The translations under genes and the position numbers were made by a program. This document shows, in pieces, positions 21,054 to 62,200 of a stretch of 64,000 bases of DNA; positions within the stretch are counted from its first letter, which is position 1; the number at the start of each line of letters is the position of its first letter. The DNA is from Endozoicomonas sp. 8E. Its GTDB lineage: Bacteria > Pseudomonadota > Gammaproteobacteria > Pseudomonadales > Endozoicomonadaceae. Under the pieces are notes generated by a model. It was not told the origin of the DNA and did no database searches. It worked only from the letters and a program-made list of their open reading frames with translations. The stretch is from the NCBI RefSeq assembly GCF_032883915.1, contig NZ_CP120717.1, forward strand, positions 4,533,697 to 4,597,696, given 5' to 3'.

Positions 21054-21368
21054 CCGAAATCACTTCCCAAATGATTGCTCTCCAAGATTTGTTTCGGCCT
21101 TCAGTGGCAAGAGACCAGTTACTATGGCGTCTGCTGATTTCTACACCGCGATCATGCAGGATTGCTCTTGCATCAGTTGTTCCCTCAACGCAATGCAGAC
21201 CTCCCGAATTAAGACACTTAACTTTCCTCGCGTAGATGCCCAATTTATAAAACGTACCCCGATTGCAGATGGAGGGCTTAATGGTCACGTGCCCACTGGC
21301 CCCGAATACGTCACACCTCATATTGGGTTCCTGTTCGTCGCCCCGCGATTTTGCGTTGGGCTTCCTTC

Positions 21369-21410
21369 AGACCGGGTCGCGTAGACCGGGTCGCGTAGAC
21401 CGGGTCGCGT
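21369..21410. repeat. 14-bp tandem repeat, three copies
   Basis: Three perfect copies of AGACCGGGTCGCGT inside the degenerate intron, likely a slippage expansion. Confidence 0.7.
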
Positions 21411-29102: not shown

Positions 29103-29355
29103 GTACGCCCGACGTGGGCATGAACTTATGGGGTGAAAGTCCCCTATGGGTAAACCAGCATCGGATCTTGCGCCCAATAAGCCAACCGATGATAACCATT
29201 AGCCGACGGCAAGTGCAATTCCGCGAGGAATTGTGCGGAGGAAGCCTGAGCGCAAAAGTGCGAGCCGACGGACAGAAACTGTATACAAGGCCGAGTCTTG
29301 TGGGCGAGTGAGCACAAGATCACAAAGCCCTCTGGTTTGAGAGATACGGTAAATG

Positions 29356-29405
29356 CAGCGGTCGCCTGCATGGATGCAGGTGAGGAGCGTGAGCAGGACG
29401 CGGAA
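29356..29405 (+). repeat. Stem-loop module copy 2 (intron RNA region)
   Basis: GCGGTCGCCTGCATGGATGC then AGGTGAGGAGCGTGAGCAGG and ACGCGG; inner CCTGCAT/ATGCAGG stem. It lies in the non-coding ribozyme part of the intron. Confidence 0.55.
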
Positions 29406-29605
29406 GCTTTGTGTACTGACAGTTCATGCTCTTATTCGGGGAGGTCTGCCCAACCGGCGACCGTGAATAATATCCAGTTTGACCACTGGTTCAACAGGTC
29501 TGGCATTCTGGCTTCATCAACCGGAATGAGCGAACTCGATGAAACACGGTAGCGCATTCAGGAGTAATCCTGTCTGTGTTTGGGTAGAAGTCAGCAGACG
29601 TCATA

Positions 29606-29653
29606 CGACTGCATGGATGCAGGAGCTAGAGTAACGCAGGAGCAGTTACCGCG
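29606..29653 (+). repeat. Stem-loop module copy 3 (intron RNA region)
   Basis: Almost the same as the copy in the MITE at 8564: CGACTGCATGGATGCAGGAG, CTAGAGTAACGCAGGAGCAG. Confidence 0.65.
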
Positions 29654-33212: not shown

Positions 33213-33282
33213 ACATAACGCCATGCTGTGGGGCGCCACACAGCGGCGTCCCAGCCCCTACAGGGGCGACACCAGCAACTTG
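33213..33282 (-). other. attC left part, split by IS91-like copy C
   Basis: ACATAACGCCATGCTGTGGG...GGCGACACCAGCAACTTG. R'' of the GIY-YIG cassette (GCAAGGTTTAAC) lies 4 kb away at 37344. Confidence 0.75.
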
Positions 33283-33395
33283 TTGAACCAAGCCGCTAAC
33301 GCGGCAAAAAAATACCGTTCATCCCAGCCAACCCAACATTGCCAATACTTCCTGATATCCGTACCACTCCGGCGCGGCTTATATAAGGAAGCAAC

Positions 33396-34297
33396 ATGGA
33401 ACGTTCTGAGCAAGTCCGGTTTGACAAACTGTATCAAAAACACATCACCACCCTGAAGCTTCAGGGCAAAAGAAAATCAACCATTGATCTATACAGCAGG
33501 CCACTGCGGCGGCTGGCAACCTTCTTTGATCGTTGTCCTGACGACTCAGCCCTGAGGATTTAAAAACCTATTTTGCCGCCCTGGTGGAAAGCCATTCCTG
33601 GAGCACGGTCAAAACCGATCGTAATGGCCTGCAGTTTTTCTGGAAACATGTTCTGGGCAAACACTGGGACTTTGTTGAAATCATCAAACCACCGACCGTC
33701 AAGCGACTGCCCGTTATCCTGACGCCTGCAGAGGTAGAACGACTGCTTAATACTGTACGGAAACTACGCTATTACACCATTCTGTTGACACTTTACAGCA
33801 TGGGCTTAAGGCTGGCCGAAGGCCTGAACCTGACCATTGCCGACATTGATTCCGAACTCATGAGAGTCCATTTGCGCAACTGCAAAGGCGGCAAGGATCG
33901 CTATGTTGATCTTCCCAGTCGAACACTTAAGGCCCTGCGCCGCTATTGGGCCACTCACCGAAACCCAAAGTTTCTTTTTCCTGAAGGCCAGAGCGCACAG
34001 CAACGGCACCGAGCGACTCAGCCCATGAGCCGTTCCTGCACCCAGAAAGCCATGAGACAGCTGGTTGAAGAATGCAGGATTAATAAAAAGGTCAGCCCTC
34101 ACAGTTTACGACACAGCTTTGCCACGCACCTTCTTGAACAGGGTTTAAGTCTCAGGGCTATTCAGACGCTGCTCGGGCACATGTGCCCAAAAACCACCGC
34201 TATCCATACCCAGTTAACAGAAACCGCCCAACTTAATACCAGGAAAGTGATGAATCATCTGATCAATGAACTCAAGCTGAAAGGAGATGATCAATGA
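33396..34297 (+). pseudogene. IS91-associated tyrosine recombinase, frameshifted (copy C)
   Basis: Same protein as 45618-46520 but one base is missing near 33541 (CTGACGACTCAG instead of CTGACAGACTCAG), shifting the frame after about 48 codons. The downstream part, with the catalytic RHRHY residues, remains open from 33584. The stop overlaps the transposase start (ATGA). Confidence 0.85.
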
Positions 34298-35313
34298 AGC
34301 TTTCCGATATAGCAGCGCAATACGGTGATCGGTTTCTGGAAAAATACAGTCAATGTCTTTTACCTGGCCATATCAAAGCACTGCAAGCGATACAGCACTG
34401 TCGAACGTCGGCAGCCGGTATGACCTTGCTGGAATGCAACAGCTGCGGGACACGGGATCAAAAGCTCATGTCCTGCGGGCATCGCCACTGCAAACGCTGC
34501 CAGAACACCGATACCAGCGAGTGGCTGCAGCGGCAAAGACAAAAACTACTGCCCGTTGAATACTTTATGGTGACCTTCACCTTGCCAGCGCAACTTCGAA
34601 ACCTGGCGTGGCAACATCAACGACAGGTGTACGATTTACTGTTCAGAACGGCAGCTGACACCCTAAAAGAATTCGGCAGCAATTCCAAAAAACTGGATGC
34701 AGGCCTGGGAATGACCGGCGTCCTGCACACTCATAGCCGACGACTGGATTACCATCCCCATATACACTTTGTCGTTCCAGGTGGCGGCATCAATACCCGA
34801 CGAAAAGAGTGGCGCAAACTCACAGGCAACTACCTGTTCAATGGCAAGAACCTGGCCATGGTCTTTCGAGCCAAACTCCTTCGCGCCCTGGACGAACAGG
34901 GACTACTATCTCCGAGCCTGAAAACAAGGCTGCCCAAAGAGTGGATCGTCAATTGCAAACGGGTAGGCAAAGGATTACCAGCACTTGAATATCTATCCCG
35001 CTATCTGTACCGAGGCGTGATCAGTGACAACAATATCCTGGCCAGCAAACGAGGAAAGGTGACCTTTTCTTACCTCAACAGTGAAACCGGCAAAAAGGAG
35101 AAGCGGACCCTGCCAGGAGAAGACTTCCTGTGGCTGGTACTGAAACATGTATTACCCAGACGACTTCGACGATCGCGGGATTACGGATTTTTACACAGCA
35201 ATGCAAAAAAACAATTATCACTGGTACAACTGGTTTTAAATGTGATGGTGAAAGCAGTCGAACCTGTCATTCGCCCGAAATTCACATGCAGGCATTGCGG
35301 TGAGTCTATGAAA

Positions 35314-37044
35314 CCGCCTTTCACCACCCCTATCAGGAATACATGGACTCGTAAAAAATGCCTAAAATTTGAATGATCGTCCACTGCCTTTCCTTCAAGC
35401 CAACCACATGTTTCTCCTGATTATTGACCGTTAATACACTAAGCCCCTGGAAACAGAAAAATACCCATCTCGCTGTTGGGTTCTGGCAGGGCTTTTTTTT
35501 CTGGTCTGGAAATACACGACTTTGCTTTTTCAGTTCCTGCCTGATTCTGTGCTGGATAGCAGCATAGACCATCAGGCATAGAGTCATCACCATTAACAGG
35601 GCTTCAATACGTTCCGCTTTCTTCAGATAGAGCGAAGAGACCAGAAAGTCCGGGCTCTTCAGGAACCGAAAGCCGCCTTCAACTTTTTGTTGCGACTTGT
35701 AGATAGACAGCAGCTCAGAGGCATTCAAACTATTTTTATCCAGTTCATTGGTGCTTAGGATAAAACAACCCAGTGAGGCCTGTGCATGCTCCCTTTTCTC
35801 GCAGGAAACAAAGCATTCAGCCTGCACAAAGTACTCGAAGTGATCAGGCTTGCTATCCGGCGATGGTCTTCCTTTGCCCGAATAGCGGGGTTTACAGATA
35901 ACCTCAGGCTCTGTTTCGCTTTGGCAAAGTTTCGATTGTTTCTGCCACAAGGCAAAAGCCTTCAATGCATCGTCCCGGCACAGAAAGGCCTTTTTGTGCA
36001 GTTTTTCCAGATCACGGGCCTCTTTCAGCGACTGCTTTTGCATCTTTCGGGTCAGTGTTTTCAGTTCACTAAGCCCGCGCTTTTTGTTGAGAAACAGGAA
36101 CCATCGTTGTTCAACCCCTCCATAGCAGGAAGGCACTTCAGCTGAGTAGTAATCTTCATAGCCTTCAACAGGCTCCAGCGACATGGTTGGCGCTTTGCAG
36201 ACCAGCTCCTTTGCCTTCTTGATGTTCAGGGGCACCCGGGAGATAAACAGCTGCTTTTGCTCATCAAGCGACTGAAGGGTTTCTGTAACATACATGGCAG
36301 CATCAGCAACCAGATAGCGGCTATTCAAAGCGGCCTTAAAACATGACAAATGATTTTTGATAATTTCCTGAAAACAGGTTTTGTCGTTTACATTACCACT
36401 GGCAGGGGCCATAAACACAGGGATGCCCGCCTCATTTTCAGTCATTAACTGCAAGACCACCTGATTCAGTTCAGGCCGGTGATCACGGCTGTAACCTTGG
36501 CAGATATGGATACAGTTCAAGTCGTCTGGATTGTCATGACTGTTATAGACTCCATCCACATGAAAGCTGGTGCCATCCAGATTTAATGCCTTGCAAGGAA
36601 GTTTCAGATGATTGACGACCTTGACGGCCAGATTGAGATACAAGTCGCTAACACCAGCGTCGTACAAACTGTCGAGAGCCCGACCAAGTACCTTGTCGTT
36701 CAAGTGTTCGGCCTGTATATCTTCCCCGATAAGGCGGTCAATCGGCTTATCCTCAAAAAACTCAGGGAGCATGTACAGAGTTTGCCTCGTAAAGCCCAAG
36801 CCATTGATGATCATTGCGACTACAGCTTGCCCAATAGTGACATTACGAACATCGGAGTCATTTGTGATACGGGCATCAATGTATTCGGCTATCTTTAACT
36901 CCCGACACATAGCGGCAACCAAGCCAAGGTGGTTGAGGTTCTTAGACTGGTATTGAGCTGTAGGCATGTTGGTGCACCTGAATGTCTGTTTATTTCTTTG
37001 ACAACAGATTTTAGGCAAATATCAATCGGGGTGGTGAAAGGCAG
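35314..37044 (-). mobile_element. IS1634-like insertion sequence (IS4 superfamily)
   Basis: 1,731 bp with inverted repeats CCGCCTTTCACCACCCC / GGGGTGGTGAAAGGCAG and a 6-bp direct repeat ATGAAA at 35308-35313 and 37045-37050. It is inserted in the transposase of IS91-like copy C; the empty-site sequence is seen in the other copies (CTATGAAACACATTGCG). Confidence 0.9.
35333..36967 (-). CDS. IS1634-family DDE transposase
   Basis: About 544 residues from the ATG at 36967 (MPTAQYQSKNLNHLGLVAAM). The N-terminal DUF4277 domain (IGQAVVAMIINGLGFTRQTL) is followed by an RNase H fold with LNLDGTSFHVDGVY (first Asp region), LVADAAMYV, and the late ...YKSQQKVEGGFRFLKSP element with the Glu (Y-x2-R..E..F signature of IS4/IS1634). 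It reads intact, so this IS may be active. The upstream TTG frame to 37018 is not needed. Confidence 0.9.
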   Translation of the reverse strand: MPTAQYQSKNLNHLGLVAAMCRELKIAEYIDARITNDSDVRNVTIGQAVVAMIINGLGFTRQTLYMLPEFFEDKPIDRLIGEDIQAEHLNDKVLGRALDSLYDAGVSDLYLNLAVKVVNHLKLPCKALNLDGTSFHVDGVYNSHDNPDDLNCIHICQGYSRDHRPELNQVVLQLMTENEAGIPVFMAPASGNVNDKTCFQEIIKNHLSCFKAALNSRYLVADAAMYVTETLQSLDEQKQLFISRVPLNIKKAKELVCKAPTMSLEPVEGYEDYYSAEVPSCYGGVEQRWFLFLNKKRGLSELKTLTRKMQKQSLKEARDLEKLHKKAFLCRDDALKAFALWQKQSKLCQSETEPEVICKPRYSGKGRPSPDSKPDHFEYFVQAECFVSCEKREHAQASLGCFILSTNELDKNSLNASELLSIYKSQQKVEGGFRFLKSPDFLVSSLYLKKAERIEALLMVMTLCLMVYAAIQHRIRQELKKQSRVFPDQKKKPCQNPTARWVFFCFQGLSVLTVNNQEKHVVGLKERQWTIIQILGIFYESMYS

Positions 37045-37358
37045 ATGAAACACATTGCGTTCAGTTTCGTGAAACCGACCTGAGTATTGCCACAGCAACA
37101 AACACCGCCATTCACAAGCAAGGAGGAAATGTAAGCTCAGCCAGACAGATCCGTCATATCCAAGACTATCGTAATGCAGTGGTCTGGAGACACTCATCCT
37201 GAATAAATAGCGTTCAGAAAAAACGTTTTGATTCAAGGTCCGCCAGAAAAGTAAACTTCAATAGACCTTTCTTACCAGAATTCAACCCGGGCTTGTGCAA
37301 CAACAGGATAAGATTGCGGCTGGGCGCAATCTATCCTTATTCGTTAAACCTTGCGCCA

Positions 37359-39065
37359 TTAAACGAATTCTACATCTAACCAATAATGTTCTGATAGAAT
37401 CCTACCATGCCTCCATCCTAACGAAACCATCCCCTTTGTGAAGGCCTGTTTCTGATATGAAACAGTAATGGAATTTTCGGAAGCCCAGCTCTCGAAAGAC
37501 TTGAACATATCACTCTTAGTAATCTTGCCACCCTTCCTAGAGCAAATAATCTCAGCCGAGAAGCTTTTCAGATGGTCTTTTAGACGGCATTTATTTAGAG
37601 CCTCTTCAATGCTCAGCCCTCTTGAGAGGAAGTTTTTAAAGCTAGTCCTTTCGATACCATATTCCTTAGCAAATTGGGAAACACTTTCATAGACAACACC
37701 ATCATAGACAATGCTTATCTTTGATTTGATACCAGATTTATATCCATCATTCTTAGCCTTCCATTTGCATTTATCAGAGCAATAAATATGAACTCGCCTT
37801 TTTCGAGTAAATTCAACACCACAGATTTTACAGGTGCCCGTCCTCCATTCTTCAAGCGCTTCGTCTAAGGATAAACCATTACTCAACCTGCCTCGCAATG
37901 TAGTCGCTGACAGACCAAAAGAAGCTGCCAAATCACTTTGGTCTCGATAGATAACGCCTCTGAAGACAATTGAGTGATCTGCCGGCCGGTCGACCGCCTC
38001 CTCTATAGACATGCCTGCCCTGATTCGTTGACGCACCGTAATAGGCGACCTTCCATTATTGCGAGCAAGATCAGCAACGCTCTTAAAATCCTGACCTTTA
38101 TATGAAATAAGACTGGAATCAAGCGCACCAAGGCTACCTCCCACAATCGAGTTTAATCCGTTCGGGTAAGCCGTCCCCTCTTCTTCTATAAATGTTTTTT
38201 CAATCTGCTTTAAGTCCTTATTGCAGAATGCAAAAAACAGCTCTTCAACCTTAAATGACTCCGCTCCATTTTCCCGAATTGCCCTCTTTAATGGAGAGGC
38301 CGCCTCCGCCTGGTTCGCCTCGGATATATGGCTGGCCCACCTTTCCCTAACAGTACGAGTAGTAATACCTATATAGGAAAGCTTTGTTACACTATCGGTT
38401 AACCGATAAAGCCATCCACCTCTGTCAACGATAGTCTTTTTACCGTATACAATTTCTTCAAGTGCAATATCATCAAGAGCCCCACCAGACCTTAAGTTAG
38501 CGATCCTGACATTTAAGGTCGCTCTTGAAAAAGGAGAAGAATCCAGTACCGAATCGATAAAGCTTTTTTGCGATTCGAAATGCTCCCCTCTAAAAACGAT
38601 ACCGTTGCTCTCATTCTTGGGAGTAACTAGCGCTTGCTCAAGTGTCATCCCGCCCTTCATCCGTTTCCTAACCGAAGTCGTTGATATTCCATAAACAGAA
38701 CAAGCTTCTTTTACAGAAGAGTAAGAGCTGCCTTCAATCACAACGGAATCTTTACTATTGCGAACAAACCTCTTATCCACTGGCATAAGCGCCTGCTCTA
38801 CAGACAATCCATTTTTTATCCTCTCACAGTAGACCGTTCGGCTGACATCAAAATACTCACATGCTTCAGTAATTGTCGAAAATTCCATTCCATCGACACA
38901 AAGGGGTTTACTACGTCCACTATATGGTGCTGATAAAGCCTCTTCAGTGCTCATTCCCTTCGCGACTCGAGAGCGATAAACATAACTTGGAATGTTAAAT
39001 GCGTCGCAAGCGCTTTCCACGCTGCGGTAAAGCTTCCCACAAACTAATAATTCTTTTCTTGCCAT
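37359..39065 (-). CDS. GIY-YIG nuclease-like protein with seven DNA-binding-like repeats
   Basis: 568 residues, in a cassette. Three complete repeats at about residues 5-45, 55-95 and 105-150 share the pattern V.G..Y.S+.EAC..+.+S...V..R+..G+S.EEAL, with a divergent fourth at 155-205. A GIY-YIG core follows at about 215-300 (GWLYRLTDSVTKLSYIGITT, VRERWASHI, then a Glu-rich part EKTFIEEEGT). Two more repeats (FKSVADLARNNGRSPITVRQ; YRDQSDLAASFGLSATTLRG) come next, then a C2-C2 zinc motif CKICGVEF/CSDKCKWKAK, a seventh repeat (YESVSQFAKEYGIERTSFKN), and a C-terminal domain. The repeats look like small helix-turn-helix units, as in homing endonuclease NUMOD modules. Target and role are unknown; a site-specific nuclease is inferred. 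Confidence 0.75.
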   Translation of the reverse strand: MARKELLVCGKLYRSVESACDAFNIPSYVYRSRVAKGMSTEEALSAPYSGRSKPLCVDGMEFSTITEACEYFDVSRTVYCERIKNGLSVEQALMPVDKRFVRNSKDSVVIEGSSYSSVKEACSVYGISTTSVRKRMKGGMTLEQALVTPKNESNGIVFRGEHFESQKSFIDSVLDSSPFSRATLNVRIANLRSGGALDDIALEEIVYGKKTIVDRGGWLYRLTDSVTKLSYIGITTRTVRERWASHISEANQAEAASPLKRAIRENGAESFKVEELFFAFCNKDLKQIEKTFIEEEGTAYPNGLNSIVGGSLGALDSSLISYKGQDFKSVADLARNNGRSPITVRQRIRAGMSIEEAVDRPADHSIVFRGVIYRDQSDLAASFGLSATTLRGRLSNGLSLDEALEEWRTGTCKICGVEFTRKRRVHIYCSDKCKWKAKNDGYKSGIKSKISIVYDGVVYESVSQFAKEYGIERTSFKNFLSRGLSIEEALNKCRLKDHLKSFSAEIICSRKGGKITKSDMFKSFESWASENSITVSYQKQAFTKGMVSLGWRHGRILSEHYWLDVEFV

Positions 39066-39235
39066 TTCTTGCGACTACCCACAGCGCTTACTAAATTTCG
39101 TACTTAAGATATCAAAAATTGTGCAAGAAAACGTCACCTTCAAATAAAAAGTAGGCATCTGCTCCTACATTACTCTACGAACCTCCAGAGCTGGAAACTA
39201 GAGTTTCGACGGTTAGGCTATGGGTAAAGCTGGAC

Positions 39236-39298
39236 TTTAACGCTGGCAGCAAGGGTGGCGAACGCAGTGAGCCATCCCATTGCCTGTATTTGTTAGCC
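39236..39298 (-). other. attC site
   Basis: TTTAACGCTGGCAGCAAGGG...GAGCCATCCCATTGCCTGTA...TTTGTTAGCC. R' (GTTAAA) begins the GIY-YIG cassette and matches its R'' at 37344. Very similar to the site at 45012-45075. Confidence 0.75.
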
Positions 39299-45617: not shown

Positions 45618-46520
45618 ATGGAACGTTCTGAGCAAATCCGGTTTGACAAACTGTATCAAAAACACATCACCACCCTGAAGCTTCAGGGCAAAAGAAAATC
45701 AACCATTGATCTATACAGCAGGCCGCTGCGGCGGCTGGCAACCTTCTTTGATCATTGTCCTGACAGACTCAGCCCTGAGGATTTAAAAACCTATTTTGCC
45801 GCCCTGGTGGAAAGCCATTCCTGGAGCACGGTCAAAACCGATCGTAATGGCCTGCAGTTTTTCTGGAAACATGTTCTGGGCAAACACTGGGACTTTGTTG
45901 AAATCATCAAACCACCGACCGTCAAGCGACTGCCCGTTATCCTGACGCCTGCAGAGGTAGAACGACTGCTTAATACTGCACGGAAACTACGCTATTACAC
46001 CATTCTGTTGACACTTTACAGCATGGGCTTAAGGCTGGCCGAAGGCCTGAACCTGACCATTGCCGACATTGATTCCGAACTCATGAGAGTCCATTTGCGC
46101 AACTGCAAAGGCGGCAAGGATCGCTATGTTGATCTTCCCAGTCGAACACTTAAGGCCCTGCGCCGCTATTGGGCCACTCACCGAAACCCAAAGTTTCTTT
46201 TTCCTGAAGGCCAGAGCGCACAGCAACGGCACCGGGCGACTCAGCCCATGAGCCGTTCCTGCACCCAGAAAGCCATGAGACAGCTGGTTGAAGAATGCAG
46301 GATTAATAAAAAGGTCAGCCCTCACAGTTTACGACACAGCTTTGCCACGCACCTTCTTGAACAGGGTTTAAGTCTCAGGGCTATTCAGACGCTGCTCGGG
46401 CACATGTGCCCAAAAACCACCGCTATCTATACCCAGTTAACAGAAACCGCCCAACTTAATACCAGGAAAGTGATGAATCATCTGATCAATGAACTCAAGC
46501 TGAAAGGAGATGATCAATGA
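45618..46520 (+). CDS. IS91-associated tyrosine recombinase
   Basis: 300 residues, XerC/D-like. SAM-like N-domain (MERSEQIRFDKLYQKHITTL ... KTYFAALVESHSWSTVKTDR), catalytic domain with R in YSMGLRLAEGLNL, K in NCKGGKDRYVDLP, HxxR in [18 protein letters not shown] in LLGHMCPKTTAIYTQL and the terminal tyrosine. The only complete copy in the window. SD AAGGA precedes the ATG. The stop overlaps the transposase ATG. In this IS group it accompanies the HUH transposase; its role is not established. Confidence 0.88.
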   Translation: MERSEQIRFDKLYQKHITTLKLQGKRKSTIDLYSRPLRRLATFFDHCPDRLSPEDLKTYFAALVESHSWSTVKTDRNGLQFFWKHVLGKHWDFVEIIKPPTVKRLPVILTPAEVERLLNTARKLRYYTILLTLYSMGLRLAEGLNLTIADIDSELMRVHLRNCKGGKDRYVDLPSRTLKALRRYWATHRNPKFLFPEGQSAQQRHRATQPMSRSCTQKAMRQLVEECRINKKVSPHSLRHSFATHLLEQGLSLRAIQTLLGHMCPKTTAIYTQLTETAQLNTRKVMNHLINELKLKGDDQ

Positions 46521-47568
46521 AGCTTTCCGATATAGCAGCGCAATACGGTGATCGGTTTCTGGAAAAATACAGTCAATGTCTTTTACCTGGCCATATCAAA
46601 GCACTGCAAGCGATACAGCACTGTCGAACGTCGGCAGCCGGTATGACCTTGCTGGAATGCAACAGCTGCCGGACACGGGATCAAAAGCCCATGTCCTGCG
46701 GGCATCGCCACTGCAACCGCTGCCAGAACACCGATACCAGCGAGTGGCTGCAGCGGCAAAGACAAAAACTACTGCCCGTTGAATACTTTATGGTGACCTT
46801 CACCTTGCCAGCGCAACTTCGAAACCTGGCGTGGCAACATCAACGACAGGTGTACGATTTACTGTTCAGAACGGCAGCTGACACCCTAAAAGAATTCGGC
46901 AGCAATTCCAAAAAACTGGATGCAGGCCTGGGAATGACCGGCGTCCTGCACACTCATAGCCGACGACTGGATTACCATCCCCATATACACTTTGTCGTGC
47001 CAGGTGGCGGCATCAATACCCGACGAAAAGAGTGGCGCAAACTCACAGGCAACTACCTGTTCAATGGCAAGAACCTGGCCATGGTCTTTCGAGCCAAACT
47101 CCTTCGCGCCCTGGACGAACAGGGACTACTATCTCCGAGCCTGAAAACAAGGCTGCCCAAAGAGTGGGTCGTCAATTGCAAACGGGTAGGCAAAGGATTA
47201 CCAGCACTTGAATATCTATCCCGCTATCTGTACCGAGGCGTGATCAGTGACAACAATATCCTGGCCAGCAAACGAGGAAAGGTGACCTTTTCTTACCTCA
47301 ACAGTGAAACCGGCAAAAAGGAGAAGCGAACCCTGCCAGGAGAAGACTTCCTGTGGCTGGTACTGAAACATGTATTACCCAGACGACTTCGACGATCGCG
47401 GGATTACGGATTTTTACACAGCAACGCAAAAAACAATTATCACTGGTGCAACTGGTTTTAAACGTGATGGTGAAAGCAGTCGAACCTGTCATTCGCCCGA
47501 AATTCACATGCAGGCATTGCGGTGAGTCTATGAAACACATTGCGTTCAGTTTCCTGAAACCGACCTGA
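46517..47568 (+). pseudogene. IS91-family HUH transposase, late frameshift (copy E)
   Basis: Zinc-binding N-domain (CNSCRTRDQKPMSCGHRHCN; one Cys-region Gly changed to Arg), HUH motif DYHPHIHFVVPGGG, Y2 region EYLSRYLYRGVIS. One A is lost in an A-run near 47427, so the frame ends at 47461 (NNYHWCNWF) instead of reading QLSLVQLVLNVM...KHIAFSFLKPT to 47568. The core residues are retained; activity is uncertain. Confidence 0.8.
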
Positions 47569-50900: not shown

Positions 50901-50945
50901 AGGCCGCTAGTGAGTTATTTGCATTTTTGGTATTTTCTTCAATAA

Positions 50946-50965
50946 TACTGTACAAAATAACAGTT
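50946..50965 (+). promoter_or_regulatory. LexA box of intI
   Basis: TACTGTACAAAATAACAGTT matches the CTGT-N8-ACAG SOS operator exactly and ends 12 bases before the intI ATG. SOS control of integron integrases is well established, so this copy was probably LexA-regulated. Confidence 0.85.
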
Positions 50966-51377
50966 GTTGAGTTTACCATGCCATCTCCTTTTATGACTGA
51001 AGTACGCAACACCCTCAGAGTGAGGCGCTATAGCTATAAAACTGAACAGTCGTATTGTTATTGGATCAAGTACTTCATTCGTTATCAAAACATGAAACAT
51101 CCAAAGAATTTAGGGCCTGATCATGTCAGACAATTTTTGACTTATCTTGCCGTTCAGCGTCGGGTTGCTACTTCAACACAAAACCAGGCATTGAATGCTC
51201 TGAACTTTTTATACAAACAAGTTTTAGGCAGAACCCTGGGCGATGTCAGCAACCTGGTCAGAGCAAAGAAGCCCACAAGGATTCCTGTGGTGTTTGAAAG
51301 GCATGAAATAAATGCAATTTTCACAGTGATCAGCCGCTACTAAAAATCTAACATAATCTGTAATTATGTAGACTTAT

Positions 51378-52542
51378 CTACGCCGTCGACATGGATGCAC
51401 GACGAATCGTGTCTGACTCCACTCTTGCGTAGGGTTTAGGGTCGAGCTGTAACCTGTCTCGACCATAATTATCAAGGTTAAAACTCGCACTGTAATCCCT
51501 ATCATGCAGAGTTTTACATTTTGGACACCGCCACTCACGATCAGACAGAGTAAGATTGTCATTTACGTAGTCGCAAGTATGAACCGCACACTTCTTCGAG
51601 CTGGGAAAGAACCGATCTGCAATCACAACCTGACATCCTCGCAGCTCTGCCTTGTATTCAACCAGTTCTCTCAGCTTACCGAAACCTGCGTCACTGATTG
51701 CTCTTGCCAGTTTGCGGTTTTTTACCATGCCTTTGACATTCAGATTTTCGAGGGTGATTATTTTGAATCTTGACGTCAGATAATCACTTACCTCATGTAG
51801 TACGGCTGTTCGCTGGTTACTTATCCGGTAATGCAGTTTGGCAACCGCTCGCTTGGCTTTCACATAGCGGTTGCTTCCCTTTGTTTTGCAGCTTAACGCC
51901 CTCTGTTTCCTGTTAAGGCGTTTCAGAGAGCCTTTCAGTTTCTGATTAGCAGCAAAGGTTTTGCCATTCGAACAAATAGCTAAATCTTTGATGCCAAAAT
52001 CAACGCCTACAGACTCATTGCTTTGTGCTTTTGGGTCGTAATCCTGAGTGTCTACCAAAATAGAAGCGAAATACTTTCCGGCTCGCTTAGTGATCGTCAC
52101 CTGACAGGGTGTTCCTGTGAACCTCAGTTTCTGGCGCATCTTGATGCGGGTTTTCAATTTCTCAATGCGAAGTGTTCTGCCATCAACATCGAACTTGGGT
52201 TTTTCTCTGAGAGAAAAACTGTCGTGTAGTCCTCGCTTCTTGAATCTTGGATAACCTGCTTTTTCTCCTTTCTTCACCCGACGGAAGAAGTGAGTAAAGG
52301 CGTCATGAAGATCGTCGATTGTATTCCTGGTGACACGTTGGCTGACTTCGGCATACCAGGGAAACTCAAGCCTGAGTTCTTGGTATTTTTCATTGGCAGC
52401 CTTCTTTGACCATTTAACGCCTTCTTGATTGAAATGGGCTAACAGTTGATTGAACGCATGACGACGAGAACCACAAGCCCTATCAAGATAATCGGCTTGT
52501 TGTTTTGTCGGTCTGAGTTCAATCTTGTGAGCTAACAACATC
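51378..52542 (-). CDS. tnpB: TnpB RNA-guided nuclease (IS607-associated)
   Basis: About 388 residues from the ATG at 52542 (MLLAHKIELRPTKQQADYLD). HTH/N-domain, then a split RuvC domain: VGVDFGIKDLAICSNGKTFA (first Asp), IITLENLNVKGMVKNRKLAR (Glu), a zinc ribbon KKCAVHTCDYVN/WRCPKCKTLHDRD (four Cys, last Asp in HDRD). All catalytic residues are present, so it may be active. It is the Cas12 ancestor family; it cleaves DNA guided by RNA from the element's own end. The frame upstream of 52542 overlaps tnpA and is not part of it. Confidence 0.9.
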
Positions 52543-52552
52543 TCGCAAAGTC

Positions 52553-52837
52553 TCAAGCATTTTTTCGTATAACCTGAGTTCGCCAACCTTCTATAGAACA
52601 GTAGGCTTCCAGTAACTCTTGCTGCCTGTCTAAGTCTGGCTTTTGGTCGTGACTGGATACTCTGCAATAGCAAAGCGTAGGCGCAGCTTCGTTACTGTAG
52701 CCCATCAATTCAGACACGTCGTAGTAACAAGTTCCAACTTTGGTCTTTCTGGCAGGAAGCAGCTCACCTGTGCTTTCCGATTTTCGTAGTGTTATTGGGT
52801 CTGTACCATGTAAACGAGCTGCCTCACCTATCTTCAC
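52553..52837 (-). pseudogene. IS607 TnpA serine recombinase, C-terminally truncated
   Basis: 94 codons: MerR-like HTH start [20 protein letters not shown], then the serine recombinase core beginning TLCYCRVSSHDQKPDLDRQQ with the catalytic Ser in RVSS. It should continue for about 100 more residues (arginine-rich active-site helices) but stops after WRTQVIRKNA and runs into the tnpB start. The element is therefore probably immobile by itself, though TnpB remains. Confidence 0.85.
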
Positions 52838-53514
52838 TAATCACTTATCCATGCTCGAGATTTTATAAGATAGTTTTAGATTATAATAGATTTCTGCGAA
52901 CTGTTTTTAACCCTACACACAAGTTACCGGTTCAACTGATGTATGGCTCCGGGCTGCGGCTAATGGAGTGCCTTCGTCTGCGTATAAAGGATATTGACTT
53001 CAACCGTAAGGCTATTCTTGTTCGCAGTGGTAAAGGCAATAAAGACCGGGTAACTGTCTTGCCTGACCCACTTATTCCTGGGCTAAAAGCCCGAATAAGC
53101 GAGGTTCGTTTTCTCCATACTATGGATAAAGAAGCCGGTTTTGGTGAAGTATGGATGCCGGATTCTCTTGCAAAAAAATACCCATCTGAAGCAAAAAGCC
53201 TGCATTGGCAGTATTTATTTTGTTCTCACAAACGTTCAACTGACCCCAGAGATGGCCGCGAGCGACGCCATCATATTGATAACAGCACTTTGCAAAGAGC
53301 GGTAAAACGAGCCATTAAGCTATCCGGTATAGAAAAGAAAGGAAGCTGCCATACTTTCCGACATTCTTTTGCTACTCATTTGCTGGATGATGGTTACGAT
53401 ATTCGAACTGTTCAGGAGCTTCTTGGCCACAAAGACCTCAAGACAACCCAGATCTACACTCATGTGCTAAATCGTGGTGGTCATGCAGTAAAGAGCCCTC
53501 TGTGCAAAATATAA

Positions 53515-55726: not shown

Positions 55727-58700
55727 ATGAGTTTATCCTGAAAGATTGAACTCACAGAGAACTCAGGGCTCCTTTGACCAGCAGCTTTACAATCACTGCA
55801 TTCAGCGTAACCAATGGATTGACACCAAAAGAAATGCCAAGGTTTGGCTGGTTATCCCGCGTAACAAAACCAACATCGGAGACCAGCTCACGAGGTTCAA
55901 ATATGAAGAAATCAAAGATATTGGTCGTTTCAGGACAGTCTGGATAAGTCAACTTCGGTATAACGTTCTGTTTTATATCGTTAACGAATCTGGCGTCATG
56001 ACCACACCAGTAGATAAGCTCTCTAACAGCCTGTGACAGCAACCCATTCTCATCCATGGACTGCCCTATGGACTCTTCTGTGAATTGAGGAAACGCCTTG
56101 TGAAACAGGGTAGCCAGAATTGCCTTTATTTTATGCTCATGATTGACTGTGGACTCCCTATTGCCAGAGTCGAACTGTTTTTGAAAACAGAGAGCATATT
56201 GCAATACCAGCCCCTGGGCATTTTTTGCCAGTTCTGAAAAGGCCACCTTGGCCCGATCCTCTGACTTTTCAAAATCAAGAAATTTCTGACACCTGCTGGA
56301 GAAAAAATAATCTTCACCCAGCTCATTCATACTTTTCGTATCTCCGGAATCCCGCATGCCAATGGGACCTACATTGGGATGTTCTGAGGCTTTTTTCCAC
56401 TGGAGCATCCTCCCCTCGCTAGAAGCATCCACATAAGACGAAAGCACATGGTGCTTCCGGTTCGTCACAGAATCATGGTCAGCCGCCATTAACTCTGGGG
56501 CATATAATCCGCAACTGAATAAAACACCGCAATCATGGGCATACTTATAGAGTCCCTCGAAAATCTGATCCGCCTTTGTTACTGGATCAAGAACGTAAGG
56601 GTATAAATGATAAGGCGCATCTTTGGTTGATTTCAGATGCAGAGAATAACCTGTCTTGCCATCAATGTAGCGACACTTTTCCTCCAGTTTGGTCTTTATG
56701 GTGGGAGGTATTAATCTCGTCAGGTCAGTCTGCACATTTTCCCAGCAATAACTGCCGACTACTTCAGGTATCGAACTTTTCAAGCCATGCTGGCTGGCTA
56801 TGGTTGCCATCAGGCTGGTTTTATTACCCTCTTTAGCCAGTTCTTCAGGCTTTTCCGTATCACTGAGAAATTTCAAATAATCCCAGCCGCCATCCGTTCG
56901 CTGAATGACCAGCGTTCGCCCGCACACCTCGATAGATTTGCCCATCAATGATGCTGTCGGGGGAGGGGCAGTCCACTGCTGCGGATTGTCCAGTTTTTGC
57001 CAATCATTATCAAACTGATTTCCCTGTGGTTGATAATCTTTATCAAGTGATAACAGTAACTGCCAAATGTTAGGACTTCCCACAATATTGAGGGGATAAG
57101 CAGTTCTGCAAAACAAGGCTTCCCGCTGTTTTGCACAATCAGGATTGTTTAACCAGGTATTTAGCACATGGATTCGATGGCCTGGAGGAGCAAGCCGCAG
57201 AAATGATTCAATGATGTCAAAATGTAAGTTAGTGACGCCAGTGGTGTACGTTACAAGTTGAGAATATGCATATGATCCTGGTGGTGTTGCCGATGCCTCA
57301 TTGCCCGGGTCCGGCCACAGGTCCGGACGGTAACTTTTCAGCCTGGTTGTAAACGTTGCCTCAACCTCACGGTAGCGCGATTCCGATCGAACCCATGACA
57401 GGCCATCCAGCAAAAGCCAGTCCATGAATTTCCTGAAATCATCAGGATGGGTGAGGCCATTGCAGCATTTGACCTGACTGATAAGGGTGTTCCATGTCTC
57501 ACTATACTGGACATCTTCCTGTAAAAGACCTGCACTGTTTGCCAAAATAGTATCATTAATTCCCTTAAAAATTTTTGCTGCCCACAAGCTTATATCTCTC
57601 AGATCCAAATATTTCCCATGATACGCCCATAACCCATTTTCCGATCCATAACTCCCCTTATGGCAAATGGACATCTGTTCCATGACAAGATGGATAAATG
57701 GCAGCTCATCCTTCTCTGAATACAGGTGTTCCTCGTGCATCTGCATTCCAAATTGGTCGGGCAAGGTCCATAAAAACGGAGCTATTCGATTGACTGTATT
57801 GACAAACAATCGTTCATTGGTCAAACCAGCCTCTTTGGCCATAAGAAAAGGAGATTTATTAAGATTAACCGATGCGTCTTTAAACGCCTGTCTGGAGATG
57901 GTAACACCCATTTCAGTCAATAATTCGGAGCATTGGTGAAGTCCTCCCAATACAGCAATCATTGCAATCAGCTTCTGTTCTTCCTGACAAAATGAAACAA
58001 TAAGTTTGCGGGCTTCTTTTTGTGATTGTTGTGCAATAGCTTCAATAACAAACACCATTATTATGTTTTTTTTGTATCTGTGAATCTCTCTTCTATTAGT
58101 AAATCGGTGGTATCGAAATTGATGCTCATTCAAGTCTCTGATTATGTTTCTGCTATTGCATCCACGGCGGAGGTAATTAAAGAAAATCATTAACCTGGCC
58201 AATGAAACCTTTGGTATTGATTGTGCAATTACTTCCTGAAATAACATACCATCAATGGATCGGGAATTTAGAATCTCCTCGGAAAGAAGTTCAAAGCGAG
58301 AGTCCGGATCAGAAAAAACACCCTTGACAAATAACAGGTCCGGGCAATGATCTTCGCAGTTATCGACCAGCTTTCTCATCGTATCAAAAGGGAGGTATAC
58401 GGTAGTTTCAAGGTCAAAATCAAGACCGCTGGATAGAGGATTGATGGGGAACCCTTGCTCAATAATATAGGTAAGTACTTTCAGATTGTTTTTTTCGACC
58501 CCGGCCCAAATAGCAATATCCCGTGCTATTTTTTGAACATCAACCGCTATTTTTTTCCTTGATTCGATACCGCTTGTAATTTCCGATTTATACCTGCTAA
58601 CGATGTAAGTATCATTATCAAAATATTCTTTAACCTCTCTTTTCAGCTCATTAACTTTATCCATTAGACTGATATTGACATGTAATTTATCAAATTGTTG

Positions 58701-59206
58701 GAAAAGTTTCTCAAATTCTTCTTTTATACATTCTTCTTTATCATGTTCTGAAGTCAGTAATTCCAGCAACTTTGTTTGCTCTGGCTGACCATGACCAGAG
58801 CTGGGGGCTACTTTCTGGTTGCCTTCGGCCCCAACTTCTATATCGATATTTTTCGGACTGTAAAGTGTGGAATGACTGACACTGTAGTCGGTAAGATCAG
58901 GTGAGTTGTCAACACGTTGAAATCGGGGCCCAGATACTCCGGTGTTGCCAGATACAACATTGGCAGGATTGAGGTATATCTCTTTGCCTTCAGTGGATCT
59001 TACTGTCAGCGATTTATAGTTCCCTGTTCCTTCACTATCACTGACCTCAGAAATTAAGCCAGATCCGGTCATGGTATTGGTATTTTTACCTGTTACATCC
59101 ATATATGCGCACCCTTATCAAAATGTTCTTTTTACCTTTTGACAATGAGAACGAAAAAAAATTCCAATTCCCGGGCCACAACGGACAATTGCGGTAAATC
59201 CAGTGA
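55727..59206 (-). repeat. Tandem duplication unit 1 (effector gene and flanks)
   Basis: Downstream flank GATGAGTTTATCCTGAAA...ACTCAC (about 55727 and 59205) and upstream flank ATATGCGCACCCTTATCAAA (59103 and 62589) occur in both units, so the gene and its promoter region were copied together (about 3.48 kb). Confidence 0.85.
55752..59102 (-). CDS. Large effector-like protein, paralog 1
   Basis: 1,116 residues with no signal peptide. N-terminal Ser/Thr/Asn-rich region MDVTGKNTNTMTGSGLISEV of the kind used as secretion signals by type III effectors. Helical middle (TYIIEQGFPINPLSSGLDFD; VIEAIAQQSQKEARKLIVSF). C-terminal third with TLVIQRTDGGWDYLKFLSDT, a strand-loop element that could be part of a kinase-like or nucleotide-binding fold, and GLYAPELMAADHDSVTNRKH. 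No catalytic motif can be assigned. Probably a secreted effector; this is inference. Confidence 0.6.
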   Translation of the reverse strand: MDVTGKNTNTMTGSGLISEVSDSEGTGNYKSLTVRSTEGKEIYLNPANVVSGNTGVSGPRFQRVDNSPDLTDYSVSHSTLYSPKNIDIEVGAEGNQKVAPSSGHGQPEQTKLLELLTSEHDKEECIKEEFEKLFQQFDKLHVNISLMDKVNELKREVKEYFDNDTYIVSRYKSEITSGIESRKKIAVDVQKIARDIAIWAGVEKNNLKVLTYIIEQGFPINPLSSGLDFDLETTVYLPFDTMRKLVDNCEDHCPDLLFVKGVFSDPDSRFELLSEEILNSRSIDGMLFQEVIAQSIPKVSLARLMIFFNYLRRGCNSRNIIRDLNEHQFRYHRFTNRREIHRYKKNIIMVFVIEAIAQQSQKEARKLIVSFCQEEQKLIAMIAVLGGLHQCSELLTEMGVTISRQAFKDASVNLNKSPFLMAKEAGLTNERLFVNTVNRIAPFLWTLPDQFGMQMHEEHLYSEKDELPFIHLVMEQMSICHKGSYGSENGLWAYHGKYLDLRDISLWAAKIFKGINDTILANSAGLLQEDVQYSETWNTLISQVKCCNGLTHPDDFRKFMDWLLLDGLSWVRSESRYREVEATFTTRLKSYRPDLWPDPGNEASATPPGSYAYSQLVTYTTGVTNLHFDIIESFLRLAPPGHRIHVLNTWLNNPDCAKQREALFCRTAYPLNIVGSPNIWQLLLSLDKDYQPQGNQFDNDWQKLDNPQQWTAPPPTASLMGKSIEVCGRTLVIQRTDGGWDYLKFLSDTEKPEELAKEGNKTSLMATIASQHGLKSSIPEVVGSYCWENVQTDLTRLIPPTIKTKLEEKCRYIDGKTGYSLHLKSTKDAPYHLYPYVLDPVTKADQIFEGLYKYAHDCGVLFSCGLYAPELMAADHDSVTNRKHHVLSSYVDASSEGRMLQWKKASEHPNVGPIGMRDSGDTKSMNELGEDYFFSSRCQKFLDFEKSEDRAKVAFSELAKNAQGLVLQYALCFQKQFDSGNRESTVNHEHKIKAILATLFHKAFPQFTEESIGQSMDENGLLSQAVRELIYWCGHDARFVNDIKQNVIPKLTYPDCPETTNIFDFFIFEPRELVSDVGFVTRDNQPNLGISFGVNPLVTLNAVIVKLLVKGALSSL

Positions 59207-59231
59207 TGAGTTTATCCTGAAAAGATTAAAC

Positions 59232-62200
59232 TCACAGAGAGGTCAGAGCGCCCCTGGCCAGTAGCTTTACAAGCACTGCATTCAACGTAACCAATGGATT
59301 GACACCGAAAGAAACGCCAAGGTTTGGCTGGTTATCCCGTGTAACAAAACCAACGCCGGGGACCAGCTCACGAGGTTCCAATGTGCAATAATCAAAGATA
59401 TTGGTCGTTTCTGGACAGTCTGGGTAGGTCATCTTCGGTATAACATTCTGTTTAATATCGTTAACGAATCTGGCGTCATGACTACACCAGTAGACAATCT
59501 CTCTAACAGCCTGTGACAGCAGCCCATCTTCGTCCATGGCCTGAACCGCGCGCTCTTCTGTGAATCGGGGAAACGCCTTGTGAAACAGAGTAGCCAGAAT
59601 GGCCTTTATTTTATGCTCATGATTGACTGTGGATTCCCTATTGCCAGAGTCGAACTGTTTTTGAAAACAGAGAGCATATTGCAATACCAGCCCCTGGGCA
59701 TTTTTTGCCAGTTCAGAAAAGGCTACCTTGGCTCGATCCTCTGATTTTTCAAAATCAAGAAATTTCTGACATCTGCCGGAAAAAAAATAATCTTCACCCA
59801 GCTCATACATACTTTTCGTATCACCGGAGTCCCGCATGCCTACGGGACCCACATTGGGATGTTCTGAGGCTTTTTTCCACTGAAGCATCCTCCCCTCGCT
59901 AGAGGCATTCACATAAGACGAAAGCACATGGTGCTTTCGGTTCGTCACAGAATCATGATCAGCCGCCATTACCGCAGGAGCATATAATCCGCAACTGAAT
60001 AAAACACCGCAATCATGGGCATACTTACAGAGTCCCTCGAAAATCTGATCCGCCTTTGTTACTGGATCAAGTAAATAAGGGTATAAATGATAAGGCGCAT
60101 CTTTGGTTGATTTCAGATGAAGACAATAACCTGTCTTGCCATCAATGTAGCAACACTTTTCCTCCAGTTTTGCCTTTATGGTGGGAGATATTAATGTCTT
60201 CAGATCAGTCTGCACATTTTCCCAGCGATATCTGCCGACCACTTCAGGAATTGAGCTTTTCAAGCCATGCTGGCTGGCTATGGTTGCCATCAGGCTGATT
60301 TTATTACCCTCTTTTGCCAGTTCTTCCGGTTTTTCTGTATCGCTGAGAAATTTCAGATAATCCCAGCCACCGTCCGTTCTCTGAATGACCAGCGTTCGCC
60401 CGCACACCTCGATAGATTGACCCATCAATGATGCTGTCGGGGGAGGGTCTGACCACTGCTGCGGATTGTCCAGTTTTTGCCAATCATTATCAAACTGATT
60501 TTCCTGTGGCTGATAATCCTTATCCAGTGATAACAACACCTGCCAAATGTTAGGACTTCCCATAGTATTGAGGGGATGAACAGATCTGCAAAACAGGGTT
60601 TCCCGCTGCTTTGCGCAATCAGGATTGTTTAACCAGTTATTTAGCACATAAATTCGATGGCCTGGAGGGGCAAGCCGTAGAAATGATTCAATGAAGTTAA
60701 AATGTAAGTTAGTGACACGATTGCTATATGTTTCAAGTTGATCACATAATGTCGGTGATGTTGTCGAATCCTCACTACCCGGGTCCGGCCACAAGTCCGG
60801 CCGGTAACTTTTCAGTCTGGTTGTAAAAGCTGCCTCTTTCTCACGGTATTTCGATTCCCCTCGTACCCATGACAGACCATCCATCAAAAGCCATTCCACG
60901 AATTTCTTGAAATCATCGGAACGGGCCAGCCCATTGCAGCATTTAACCTGGCTGATCAGGATGTTCCATGTCTCACTATAGCGGGCATCTTCCTGTAAAA
61001 GACCTGCACTGTTTGTCAAAGTAGCATCACTCATTCCCTTAAAAATTTTTGCTGCCCACAGGCTAACATCTCCCGGAACCAATGTTGCTCCATGCTTCGG
61101 CGCTAAACCATTTTTCGATTCATAACTCCCCTCCTGACAAATCGACAATTGATCCATGACAAGATGAATAAACGACAGCGATTTTTTATCTAAAAGCCAG
61201 TGTTCCTGGTGCAGATATAGCCCGAATTTATTGGGCAAGGACCATAAAAACGGAGCTATTCGATTCACTGTATTGGCAAACAGTCGTTCATTCGTCAGAC
61301 CCGCCTCTTTAGCCATAAGAAAAGGAGAATTTTCAAGATTAACCGAGGCTTTTTTAAACGCCTGCCTGGAGACGGTAATACCCATTTCAGTCAATAGTTC
61401 GGAGCATTGGTGCAGTCCTCCCAAAAGTGCAATCATTGCAATCATCTGCTGCTCATCCTGATAAAATGATCCAATAAGATTACAGACTTCTTCCTGTGCT
61501 TCTTTTTGTGATTGTTGAGCCATAGCTTCCAAAACAAATACCATTATTATGCTTTTACTGTATCTTTCCATCCTGTGACGATTGGCAATGCGGTGATTTT
61601 CGAAGCTATGCCTATTAAGGTCTTTAATCATGTCTCTGGCATTACATTTACGACGAAGGTAGTTAAAAAAAATCATTAACCTTCTAAATGAAACTGTTGG
61701 TATTGATTGTGCGATTGCCTGCTGAAATAATTCATCTTTAATGTATCTGGAAGTTAAAATCTCCTCGGAAAGAACGTCAAAGCGAGGATCAGCATCAGCA
61801 AAAATACCCTTGACAAATAACAGGTCCGGAAAGTCTGGTTTGCAGTTATCTACCAGCTTTCTCATCGTGTCAAAAGGAAGGTATACAGTAGACTCAGAAT
61901 CAAGATCAATACGGCCAGCTTTCCTTTCGATAGGAACCCCTTGTTCAATAATATAGGTGAGCACTTTCAGATTGTCTTTTTCAACCCCCGCCCAAATAGC
62001 GATATCCCGTACTATTTTTTTAATATTATCCGCTATTTTTTTTCTTGATTGAGCACCATTTATACTTTCAAATTCTTTCCCTGTGTAGCTGTAAGTACCC
62101 GTATCAATGTATTCCTTAATCTCTTTTTTCAGCTCATTGACTTTATCCATTAAACTGATACCGACATGTAATTTATCAATTTGTTGGACAAGTTTCTCTA

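What the first reader, a model, noticed from the sequence alone, without database searches (positions are those of the whole stretch)
37359..39065. Cassette protein with a GIY-YIG nuclease inside an array of seven DNA-binding-like repeats
Seven about 42-residue units (V.G..Y.S...A...GIS..TVR.R+..G+S.EEAL pattern) surround a GIY-YIG core and a C2-C2 zinc motif. The repeats differ in the loop and second-helix residues, as expected if each contacts a different DNA segment. Homing endonucleases use one or two such NUMOD-type units, so a row of seven on a cassette is unusual and could be a programmable-looking specificity array, a homing nuclease for cassettes, or a defence nuclease.
Basis: partly seen in the sequence, partly recalled or inferred. 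Interest (0 to 1): 0.78.

Follow-up and report, generated by a model that had tools for sequence, protein, structure and literature searches.

The report
Multi-unit DNA-reading nuclease in integron
A bacterium carries, as one item in its gene-capture array, a DNA-cutting enzyme of the phage homing-endonuclease type with six or seven DNA-reading units instead of the usual one to three, most likely to cut one long, specific sequence in foreign DNA; what it cuts is not known.

Summary
Window 37359..39065 (-) is an intact 568-aa ORF: three helix-turn-helix (HTH) units, a divergent fourth, a GIY-YIG domain with its catalytic positions kept, two units, a C2-C2 zinc motif, one unit and a tail. A unit profile without this protein's rows scores 32-45 bits on six units; the best of 500 shuffles is 5.2. 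The units match Pfam I-TevI_DNA-bd and are modelled as beta-beta-HTH-helix, pLDDT 90. The gene follows an attC-like site, downstream of a broken integron integrase.

It is an enlarged form of a known kind: GIY-YIG homing-type endonuclease with I-TevI-like HTH units. A unit just before GIY-YIG is kept in four relatives; two of them have more units behind. Similar arrays occur elsewhere, notably Vpf497 of Vibrio phage VfO3K6 (7 units, borderline T5orf172 end), believed an adherence protein. Units are mutually diverged (23-42% identity), so nothing points to programmability. Most likely it cuts a long fixed site in phage or plasmid DNA; a captured selfish homing nuclease is the main rival. Target and activity are untested.

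The parts
37359..39065 (-). 568-aa ORF, GIY-YIG nuclease with HTH unit array (P0001)
   Evidence: single copy in the genome
38922..39050 (-). unit 1 (residues 6-48)
   Evidence: 39.7 bits with leave-out profile
38778..38903 (-). unit 2 (residues 55-96)
   Evidence: 34.1 bits
38613..38744 (-). unit 3 (residues 108-151)
   Evidence: 44.6 bits; best HTH_psq stretch lies here
38451..38603 (-). unit 4, divergent with insertion (residues about 155-205), directly before GIY-YIG
   Evidence: aligned with the pre-GIY unit of four relatives; not detected by the profile
38142..38417 (-). GIY-YIG nuclease domain (residues 217-308; Pfam stretch 217-298)
   Evidence: PF01541 5.1e-8; invariant Y220 Y231 R242 H246 E289 N305
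37980..38108 (-). unit 5 (residues 320-362)
   Evidence: 43.5 bits; modelled at pLDDT about 90
37842..37970 (-). unit 6 (residues 366-408)
   Evidence: 32.4 bits; modelled
37767..37832 (-). zinc motif CX2C-X13-CX3C (C412, C415, C429, C433)
37584..37712 (-). unit 7 (residues 452-494)
   Evidence: 40.3 bits; with the stretch before it, best match of PF20987 I-TevI_DNA-bd (438-473)
37386..37568 (-). C-terminal region, weakly like the Pox_D5 / phage primase C-terminal region
   Evidence: PF03288 E 0.02, below cut-off; phrog_1156 E 0.0034
39235..39298 (-). attC-like site of the cassette upstream; start of this cassette at about 39240
   Evidence: read
33213..33284 (-). attC-like site that may be the remainder of this cassette's own attC, separated from it by the IS91-type element
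   Evidence: read; that both halves belong together is inferred
33285..37342 (+). IS91-type element with tyrosine recombinase, itself interrupted by a DDE transposase gene (35333-37018, -); abuts the GTTAAAC core after the gene
   Evidence: family assigned on another copy (45618-47461)
50927..53514 (+). integron integrase gene, interrupted by a TnpB gene (51378-52673, -)
   Evidence: TIGR02249 on both pieces, searched apart: 125.3 and 314.5 bits

Best explanation
It is a site-specific DNA endonuclease of the GIY-YIG homing-endonuclease line, enlarged for long-site recognition and carried as an integron cassette. The core is [HTH unit]-[GIY-YIG]; three units stand in front of it, and three units with a zinc motif and a tail behind. 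By analogy with I-TevI, the HTH units would lie along the DNA as beads on a string, each touching a short stretch, and place the weakly selective GIY-YIG domain at its cut. The host would gain by cutting one long, fixed sequence in an incoming phage, plasmid or satellite. Shown here: the architecture, intact catalytic positions, HTH-type fold prediction, cassette location. Inferred: DNA binding, number of base pairs read, cleavage, the role against foreign DNA, expression.
For: GIY-YIG and I-TevI_DNA-bd above Pfam gathering; TIGR01453 group I intron endonuclease 1.6e-10, though below its cut-off; catalytic positions invariant with four relatives; two-unit model at mean pLDDT 89.7, beta-beta-helix-helix-helix twice; an annotated phage GIY-YIG endonuclease with units on both sides, next to thymidylate synthase; cassette placement. 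Precedent for one-protein sequence-specific immunity by a T5orf172/GIY-YIG nuclease fused to a captured DNA-binding domain: ICP1 Gp88/Odn (PMC8263062, passages read).
Against: No relative examined has a target that I know of. PADLOC gave only weak matches to a 'homing endonuclease' and a 'mad1' model. The structure search of the two-unit model gave no significant match (best E 0.92; I-TevI 1i3j at rank 33, E 3.7), although HTH regulators fill most of the 50 rows shown. The full-length model has pLDDT under 35 across GIY-YIG (single sequence). No second copy or allele was found to show selection. The integron is heavily broken by insertions, so expression is doubtful.
Confidence: 0.5

Rival explanations
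1. A selfish homing endonuclease that was captured as a cassette: it cuts an allele in a phage or other element and is copied in by repair; the integron is only its present address and the host gains nothing.
For: The GIY-YIG relatives with units that I examined lie on a phage, plasmids or a short contig; HEases with NUMODs are mostly in mobile elements (PMC1564403, passages); BcepSaruman_236 adjoins thymidylate synthase.
Against: Cassettes already move by IntI and attC, so homing adds little here (inference); no occupied and empty allele pair was found; the idea that the Cereibacter relative splits a recombinase gene failed, as both flanking pieces match the resolvase N-terminal domain from its start.
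Confidence: 0.27
2. A decaying, unexpressed passenger: once a nuclease, now without function.
For: The array is broken by IS91-type elements, a DDE element and TnpB, the integrase gene is interrupted and one attC half of this cassette seems displaced; no array-level copy in 9 same-genus genomes.
Against: 568 codons open; catalytic and zinc residues and six units intact.
Confidence: 0.15
3. A DNA-binding regulator or structural protein in which the GIY-YIG domain is inactive or secondary.
For: Arrays of 6-11 units without a recognised nuclease exist (Alteromonas P0003, Butyrivibrio P0005/P0006, Streptococcus L023).
Against: The catalytic positions are kept here.
Confidence: 0.06

Closest known systems
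I-TevI and NUMOD-bearing GIY-YIG homing endonucleases
   Same: GIY-YIG domain, zinc motif and HTH unit; PF01541 and PF20987 both pass
   Different: I-TevI has one HTH module and one zinc finger behind an N-terminal GIY-YIG domain (PMC2988022 and PMC1564403, passages); here six or seven units on both sides
BcepSaruman_236 (phage GIY-YIG endonuclease, 357 aa)
   Same: unit before GIY-YIG and two units after it
   Different: three units, different N-terminal region, no integron
Vpf497 of Vibrio phage VfO3K6 (f237 ORF8)
   Same: seven unit matches, 37% identity over 142 residues, and a C-terminal stretch at the edge of T5orf172 (19.3 bits, cut-off 20)
   Different: nuclease-like domain at the end and of another GIY-YIG subfamily; filamentous phage, not a cassette
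Clostridial arrays: Lachnospiraceae MAG L065 and Eubacterium ramulus L099/L147
   Same: six units in a row
   Different: end domain of L065 resembles DUF2726 (E 4e-4, below cut-off), which I take as PD-(D/E)XK-like (recalled), not GIY-YIG
ICP1 Gp88/Odn
   Same: GIY-YIG-superfamily nuclease aimed by a fused DNA-binding domain (PMC8263062, passages)
   Different: one RepA_N-like domain, phage-borne

Membership tests
GIY-YIG nuclease superfamily | GIY-YIG fold by curated profile | tested here: met
   PF01541 33.6 bits, cut-off 22.6
GIY-YIG nuclease superfamily | catalytic Tyr/Tyr/Arg/Glu/Asn in place | tested here: met
   invariant in A2: Y220, Y231, R242, E289, N305; correspondence to I-TevI recalled
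GIY-YIG nuclease superfamily | DNA cleavage | not testable with these tools
   bench assay needed
GIY-YIG homing endonuclease (orthodox HEase) | NUMOD / I-TevI-type DNA-binding units joined to GIY-YIG | tested here: met
   PF20987 33.1 bits, cut-off 27
GIY-YIG homing endonuclease (orthodox HEase) | units C-terminal to the nuclease | tested here: inconclusive
   three units are C-terminal, four (one inferred) N-terminal
GIY-YIG homing endonuclease (orthodox HEase) | gene lies in or beside its own cut site (intron or intergenic homing) | tested here: inconclusive
   cut site unknown; the gene lies in an integron cassette; at gathering threshold Rfam found only group II introns, elsewhere in the window
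Integron gene cassette | flanked by attC sites near an integron integrase | tested here: met
   attC-like site at 39235-39298; own attC apparently split by an IS (read by eye with a folding check); TIGR02249
Integron gene cassette | excision by IntI | not testable with these tools
   bench assay needed
Known anti-phage defence systems (PADLOC) | strong match to a defence model | tested here: not met
   two matches; best 24.1 bits to 'HEase', over 35 residues

The most novel reading that the evidence does not exclude
Tandem I-TevI-type HTH units form a general, repeat-by-repeat DNA-reading scaffold, a counterpart in spirit of TALE arrays, that has been joined at least three times to different nuclease ends (GIY-YIG inside the array here, T5orf172-like in Vpf497, possibly PD-(D/E)XK in clostridial proteins); in this integron it acts as a one-protein, fixed-target immune nuclease reading several tens of base pairs.
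Probability: 0.15. Interest if true: 0.75.

Novelty: new variant of a known kind. Interest (0 to 1): 0.47.

Why it matters
If each unit reads its own short DNA stretch, arrays of natural length 3-11 would allow a test of whether I-TevI-type HTH units are modular and additive in specificity, which one-unit enzymes cannot show. It would also give integron cassettes a sequence-aimed nuclease. And it suggests that the product of orf8, long used as a marker of pandemic V. [quoted passage not shown]

Tried and rejected
Degenerate-peptide scans with P0001 found no relative in genome contigs (37 stretches, 0 relatives) or viral contigs (2 stretches, 0). tblastn found 57 phage and 12 plasmid records, none covering 80% of the query; I looked at 6 of the 12 plasmid and 1 of the 57 phage records first and at 5 phage and 2 plasmid records later. 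PDB sequence searches: none for P0001 or the GIY part; the unit profile A1 gave 9 matches at E 0.0012 to 1, best a designed toroid, I-TevI 1i3j at 0.58, so not decisive. Structure searches gave no significant match (17 matches, best E 1.5; 130 matches, best E 0.92, 50 shown).

Rejected: recent duplication or shuffling of units. Rejected: GIY-YIG gene splitting a recombinase in Cereibacter. Rejected as evidence of relatives: most pattern-scan hits, since only 6 of 25 viral and 2 of 58 genome stretches hold an ORF with two or more units above 8 bits; I take the rest as chance. Pfam names such as PVL_ORF50, HTH_psq and DUF2525 and the PHROG name 'Panton-Valentine leukocicin' are read here as HTH-unit matches under misleading names (inference).

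Full report
What is there. Window 37359..39065 on the minus strand is an open reading frame of 568 codons, the only copy in the 7,377,917-bp genome (a second match there is a weak GIY-only one). In order: units at residues 6-48, 55-96 and 108-151; a divergent unit at about 155-205; GIY-YIG at 217-308; units at 320-362 and 366-408; a CX2C-X13-CX3C motif at 412-433; a unit at 452-494; and a tail to 568. Self-comparison: the best 36-residue BLOSUM62 score is 81, against a maximum of 27 in 10 shuffles, the shuffles being sampled at every third offset in one direction. The stronger control is a profile from 78 unit rows of other proteins, after dropping the 24 rows that are P0001 itself: 32.4-44.6 bits on six units, against a best of 5.2 bits in 500 shuffles. 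Those 78 rows had been collected with a P0001-seeded profile, so the test is not fully independent. The fourth unit is not detected that way; it is claimed only from its alignment with the unit that precedes GIY-YIG in Tolypothrix, Calothrix, Cereibacter and BcepSaruman proteins. So 'seven' is six clear units and one inferred.

What the units are. Pfam I-TevI_DNA-bd passes its cut-off (33.1 bits, cut-off 27). HTH_psq and PVL_ORF50 also pass, and many HTH families match the same stretches below cut-off. The two-unit model from 18 aligned segments (window plus loci of the DNA search) has mean pLDDT 89.7 and gives twice beta-beta-helix-helix-helix; the single-sequence model of the whole protein gives the same pattern for all six clear units, at about 51-80 by ten-residue block, but leaves GIY-YIG below 35. 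Foldseek against the PDB gave nothing significant. For the two-unit model, HTH regulators (MerR, HigA, HipB, RacA, BldC) fill most of the 50 rows shown and I-TevI 1i3j is at rank 33, E 3.7. The HTH reading rests on the profiles and the predicted topology, not on the structure search.

Catalysis. Y220, Y231, G233, R242, H246, E289 and N305 are invariant in the five-row alignment A2. Cleavage was not testable.

Where it sits. An integron integrase gene, interrupted by a TnpB gene, lies at 50927-53514 (TIGR02249: 125.3 and 314.5 bits for the two pieces, searched apart). Sites of attC form lie at about 24.6, 26.9, 31.8, 33.2, 39.2, 40.7, 45.4, 48.4 and 50.1 kb (repeat families D18 and D19, and reading). 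The gene follows the attC-like site at 39235-39298 and reads away from the integrase; nine bases after its stop comes a GTTTAAC core at which an IS91-type element stands, and an attC-like remainder lies at the other end of that element. That the two halves belong to one attC is inferred. Of six other minus-strand neighbours scanned, a LysE-type transporter, a GNAT protein and an AAA protein were recognised and three had no Pfam match at 1e-4; not every neighbouring ORF was scanned.

How unusual. With P0001 as query, 2 of 369 genomes drawn from its class match at 1e-7 (itself and one other). With the two-unit profile A1, 1 of 369 match at 1e-8, itself. With the unit-GIY profile A2, 5 of 398 genomes of the phylum match at 1e-12, itself included. 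Of 57 near genomes, itself included, 15 match P0001 at 1e-3, the other 14 over the GIY part only. In the class of Eubacterium ramulus, 2 of 291 match the A3 profile at 1e-12, itself included. Such arrays are rare but widely spread. Units above 8 bits per protein: Alteromonas plasmid 11; Butyrivibrio pCY360 six ORFs with 3-8; Vpf497 7; Streptococcus equinus 6; Lachnospiraceae MAG and Eubacterium ramulus 6 each; Lactobacillus crispatus 5; Sporosarcina 3; six IMG/VR ORFs 2 each; P0001 6 (the seventh not counted); BcepSaruman 3; Cereibacter 3, one of them at 8 bits; Tolypothrix and Calothrix 2. The G777 protein (498 aa) has one unit at 16 bits and three stretches at 2-4 bits, which I read by eye in part as diverged units.

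Working reading. The four relatives in A2 share one unit directly before GIY-YIG; BcepSaruman and Cereibacter also have units behind it, Tolypothrix and Calothrix do not. Units 1-3 resemble each other (35%) and units 5-7 resemble each other (30-42%) a little more than across the two sets (23-33%), so the two flanks may have grown separately. Variation is high at positions 27 and 32 of the putative recognition helix and low at core positions, as would be expected if units read different sequences, but other positions vary as much. By analogy with I-TevI (zinc finger, HTH, recognition site over more than two helical turns; passage in PMC2988022), I expect a long, fixed target. I put cutting of foreign DNA for the host's benefit first because integron cassettes already have a way to move, and because a GIY-YIG-superfamily nuclease aimed by a borrowed DNA-binding domain is known to give sequence-specific immunity (Odn, PMC8263062, passages). 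The evidence that separates this from a captured selfish homing enzyme is thin.

Literature. A cassette with a GIY-YIG domain is on record in an Aeromonas integron (orf6; PMC10609294, passages), so a GIY-YIG cassette as such is not new. Searches for NUMOD/GIY-YIG/repeats (6 papers), integron with GIY-YIG (7), homing endonuclease with integron and attC (3), I-TevI/HTH/NUMOD1/tandem (5) and homing endonuclease/GIY-YIG/antiphage/interference (73, of which 10 listed) showed no title or abstract opening that describes an array of this kind. I read passages only, of PMC1564403, PMC10609294, PMC3878053, PMC2988022 and PMC8263062; of PMC2631806 only the abstract and outline. Most subscription papers are not covered.

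A by-product. Vpf497 of Vibrio phage VfO3K6 (100% in the best segment of four IMG/VR contigs) matches P0001 at 37% over 142 residues, E 3e-24 for the pair, has seven unit matches and ends in a stretch at the edge of T5orf172 (19.3 bits, cut-off 20, E 0.0017) and MUG113 (18.9, cut-off 22.3); in the scan of the whole protein neither was listed at 0.01. That Vpf497 is the f237 ORF8 of the epidemiology papers rests on the matching record AY196694 named f237 and on recall. [quoted passage not shown] The sequence speaks for a DNA-binding protein.

Noticed in passing
window 22818-47838; copies also near 3.33-3.35 Mb of the genome: An IS91-type element with a tyrosine recombinase seems to insert at attC: 8 of 8 left ends found in the genome are preceded by TTGTT, 7 of them by a clear attC-like sequence (L128 is less clear, by eye), and of 13 matches of the right-end pattern, which itself asked for GTYR, 11 are followed by GTTA, one by GTCA and one (L135) is an internal repeat.
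   Followed up: partly
L017 2287-3780 (Vibrio phage VfO3K6 vpf497): Seven HTH unit matches plus a T5orf172-like end in the pandemic marker ORF8, which the literature calls a putative adherence protein.
   Followed up: partly
L018 5290-13995 (Butyrivibrio proteoclasticus pCY360): Six ORFs made largely of such HTH units lie in a row downstream of cas12a, with an IS200/IS605 element among them.
   Followed up: no
L065 189-1595, L147 529-2013: Six-unit arrays with an end domain shared by both; in L065 it resembles DUF2726 below cut-off, with a RFDF..EYDG.QHF pattern that looks like PD-(D/E)XK.
   Followed up: partly
L117 877-3570 (Calothrix plasmid): 897-aa protein with zinc-type repeats, two HTH units, GIY-YIG and about five repeats of another ~80-residue module: a mixed array (modules other than the units counted by eye).
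   Followed up: no
window 55752-62588: Two large neighbouring paralogous ORFs of 1116 and 1118 aa on the minus strand, 76-90% alike in DNA in the four 300-base blocks listed.
   Followed up: no
window 21096-21388 and 29217-29609: Group II intron domains, two copies.
   Followed up: no
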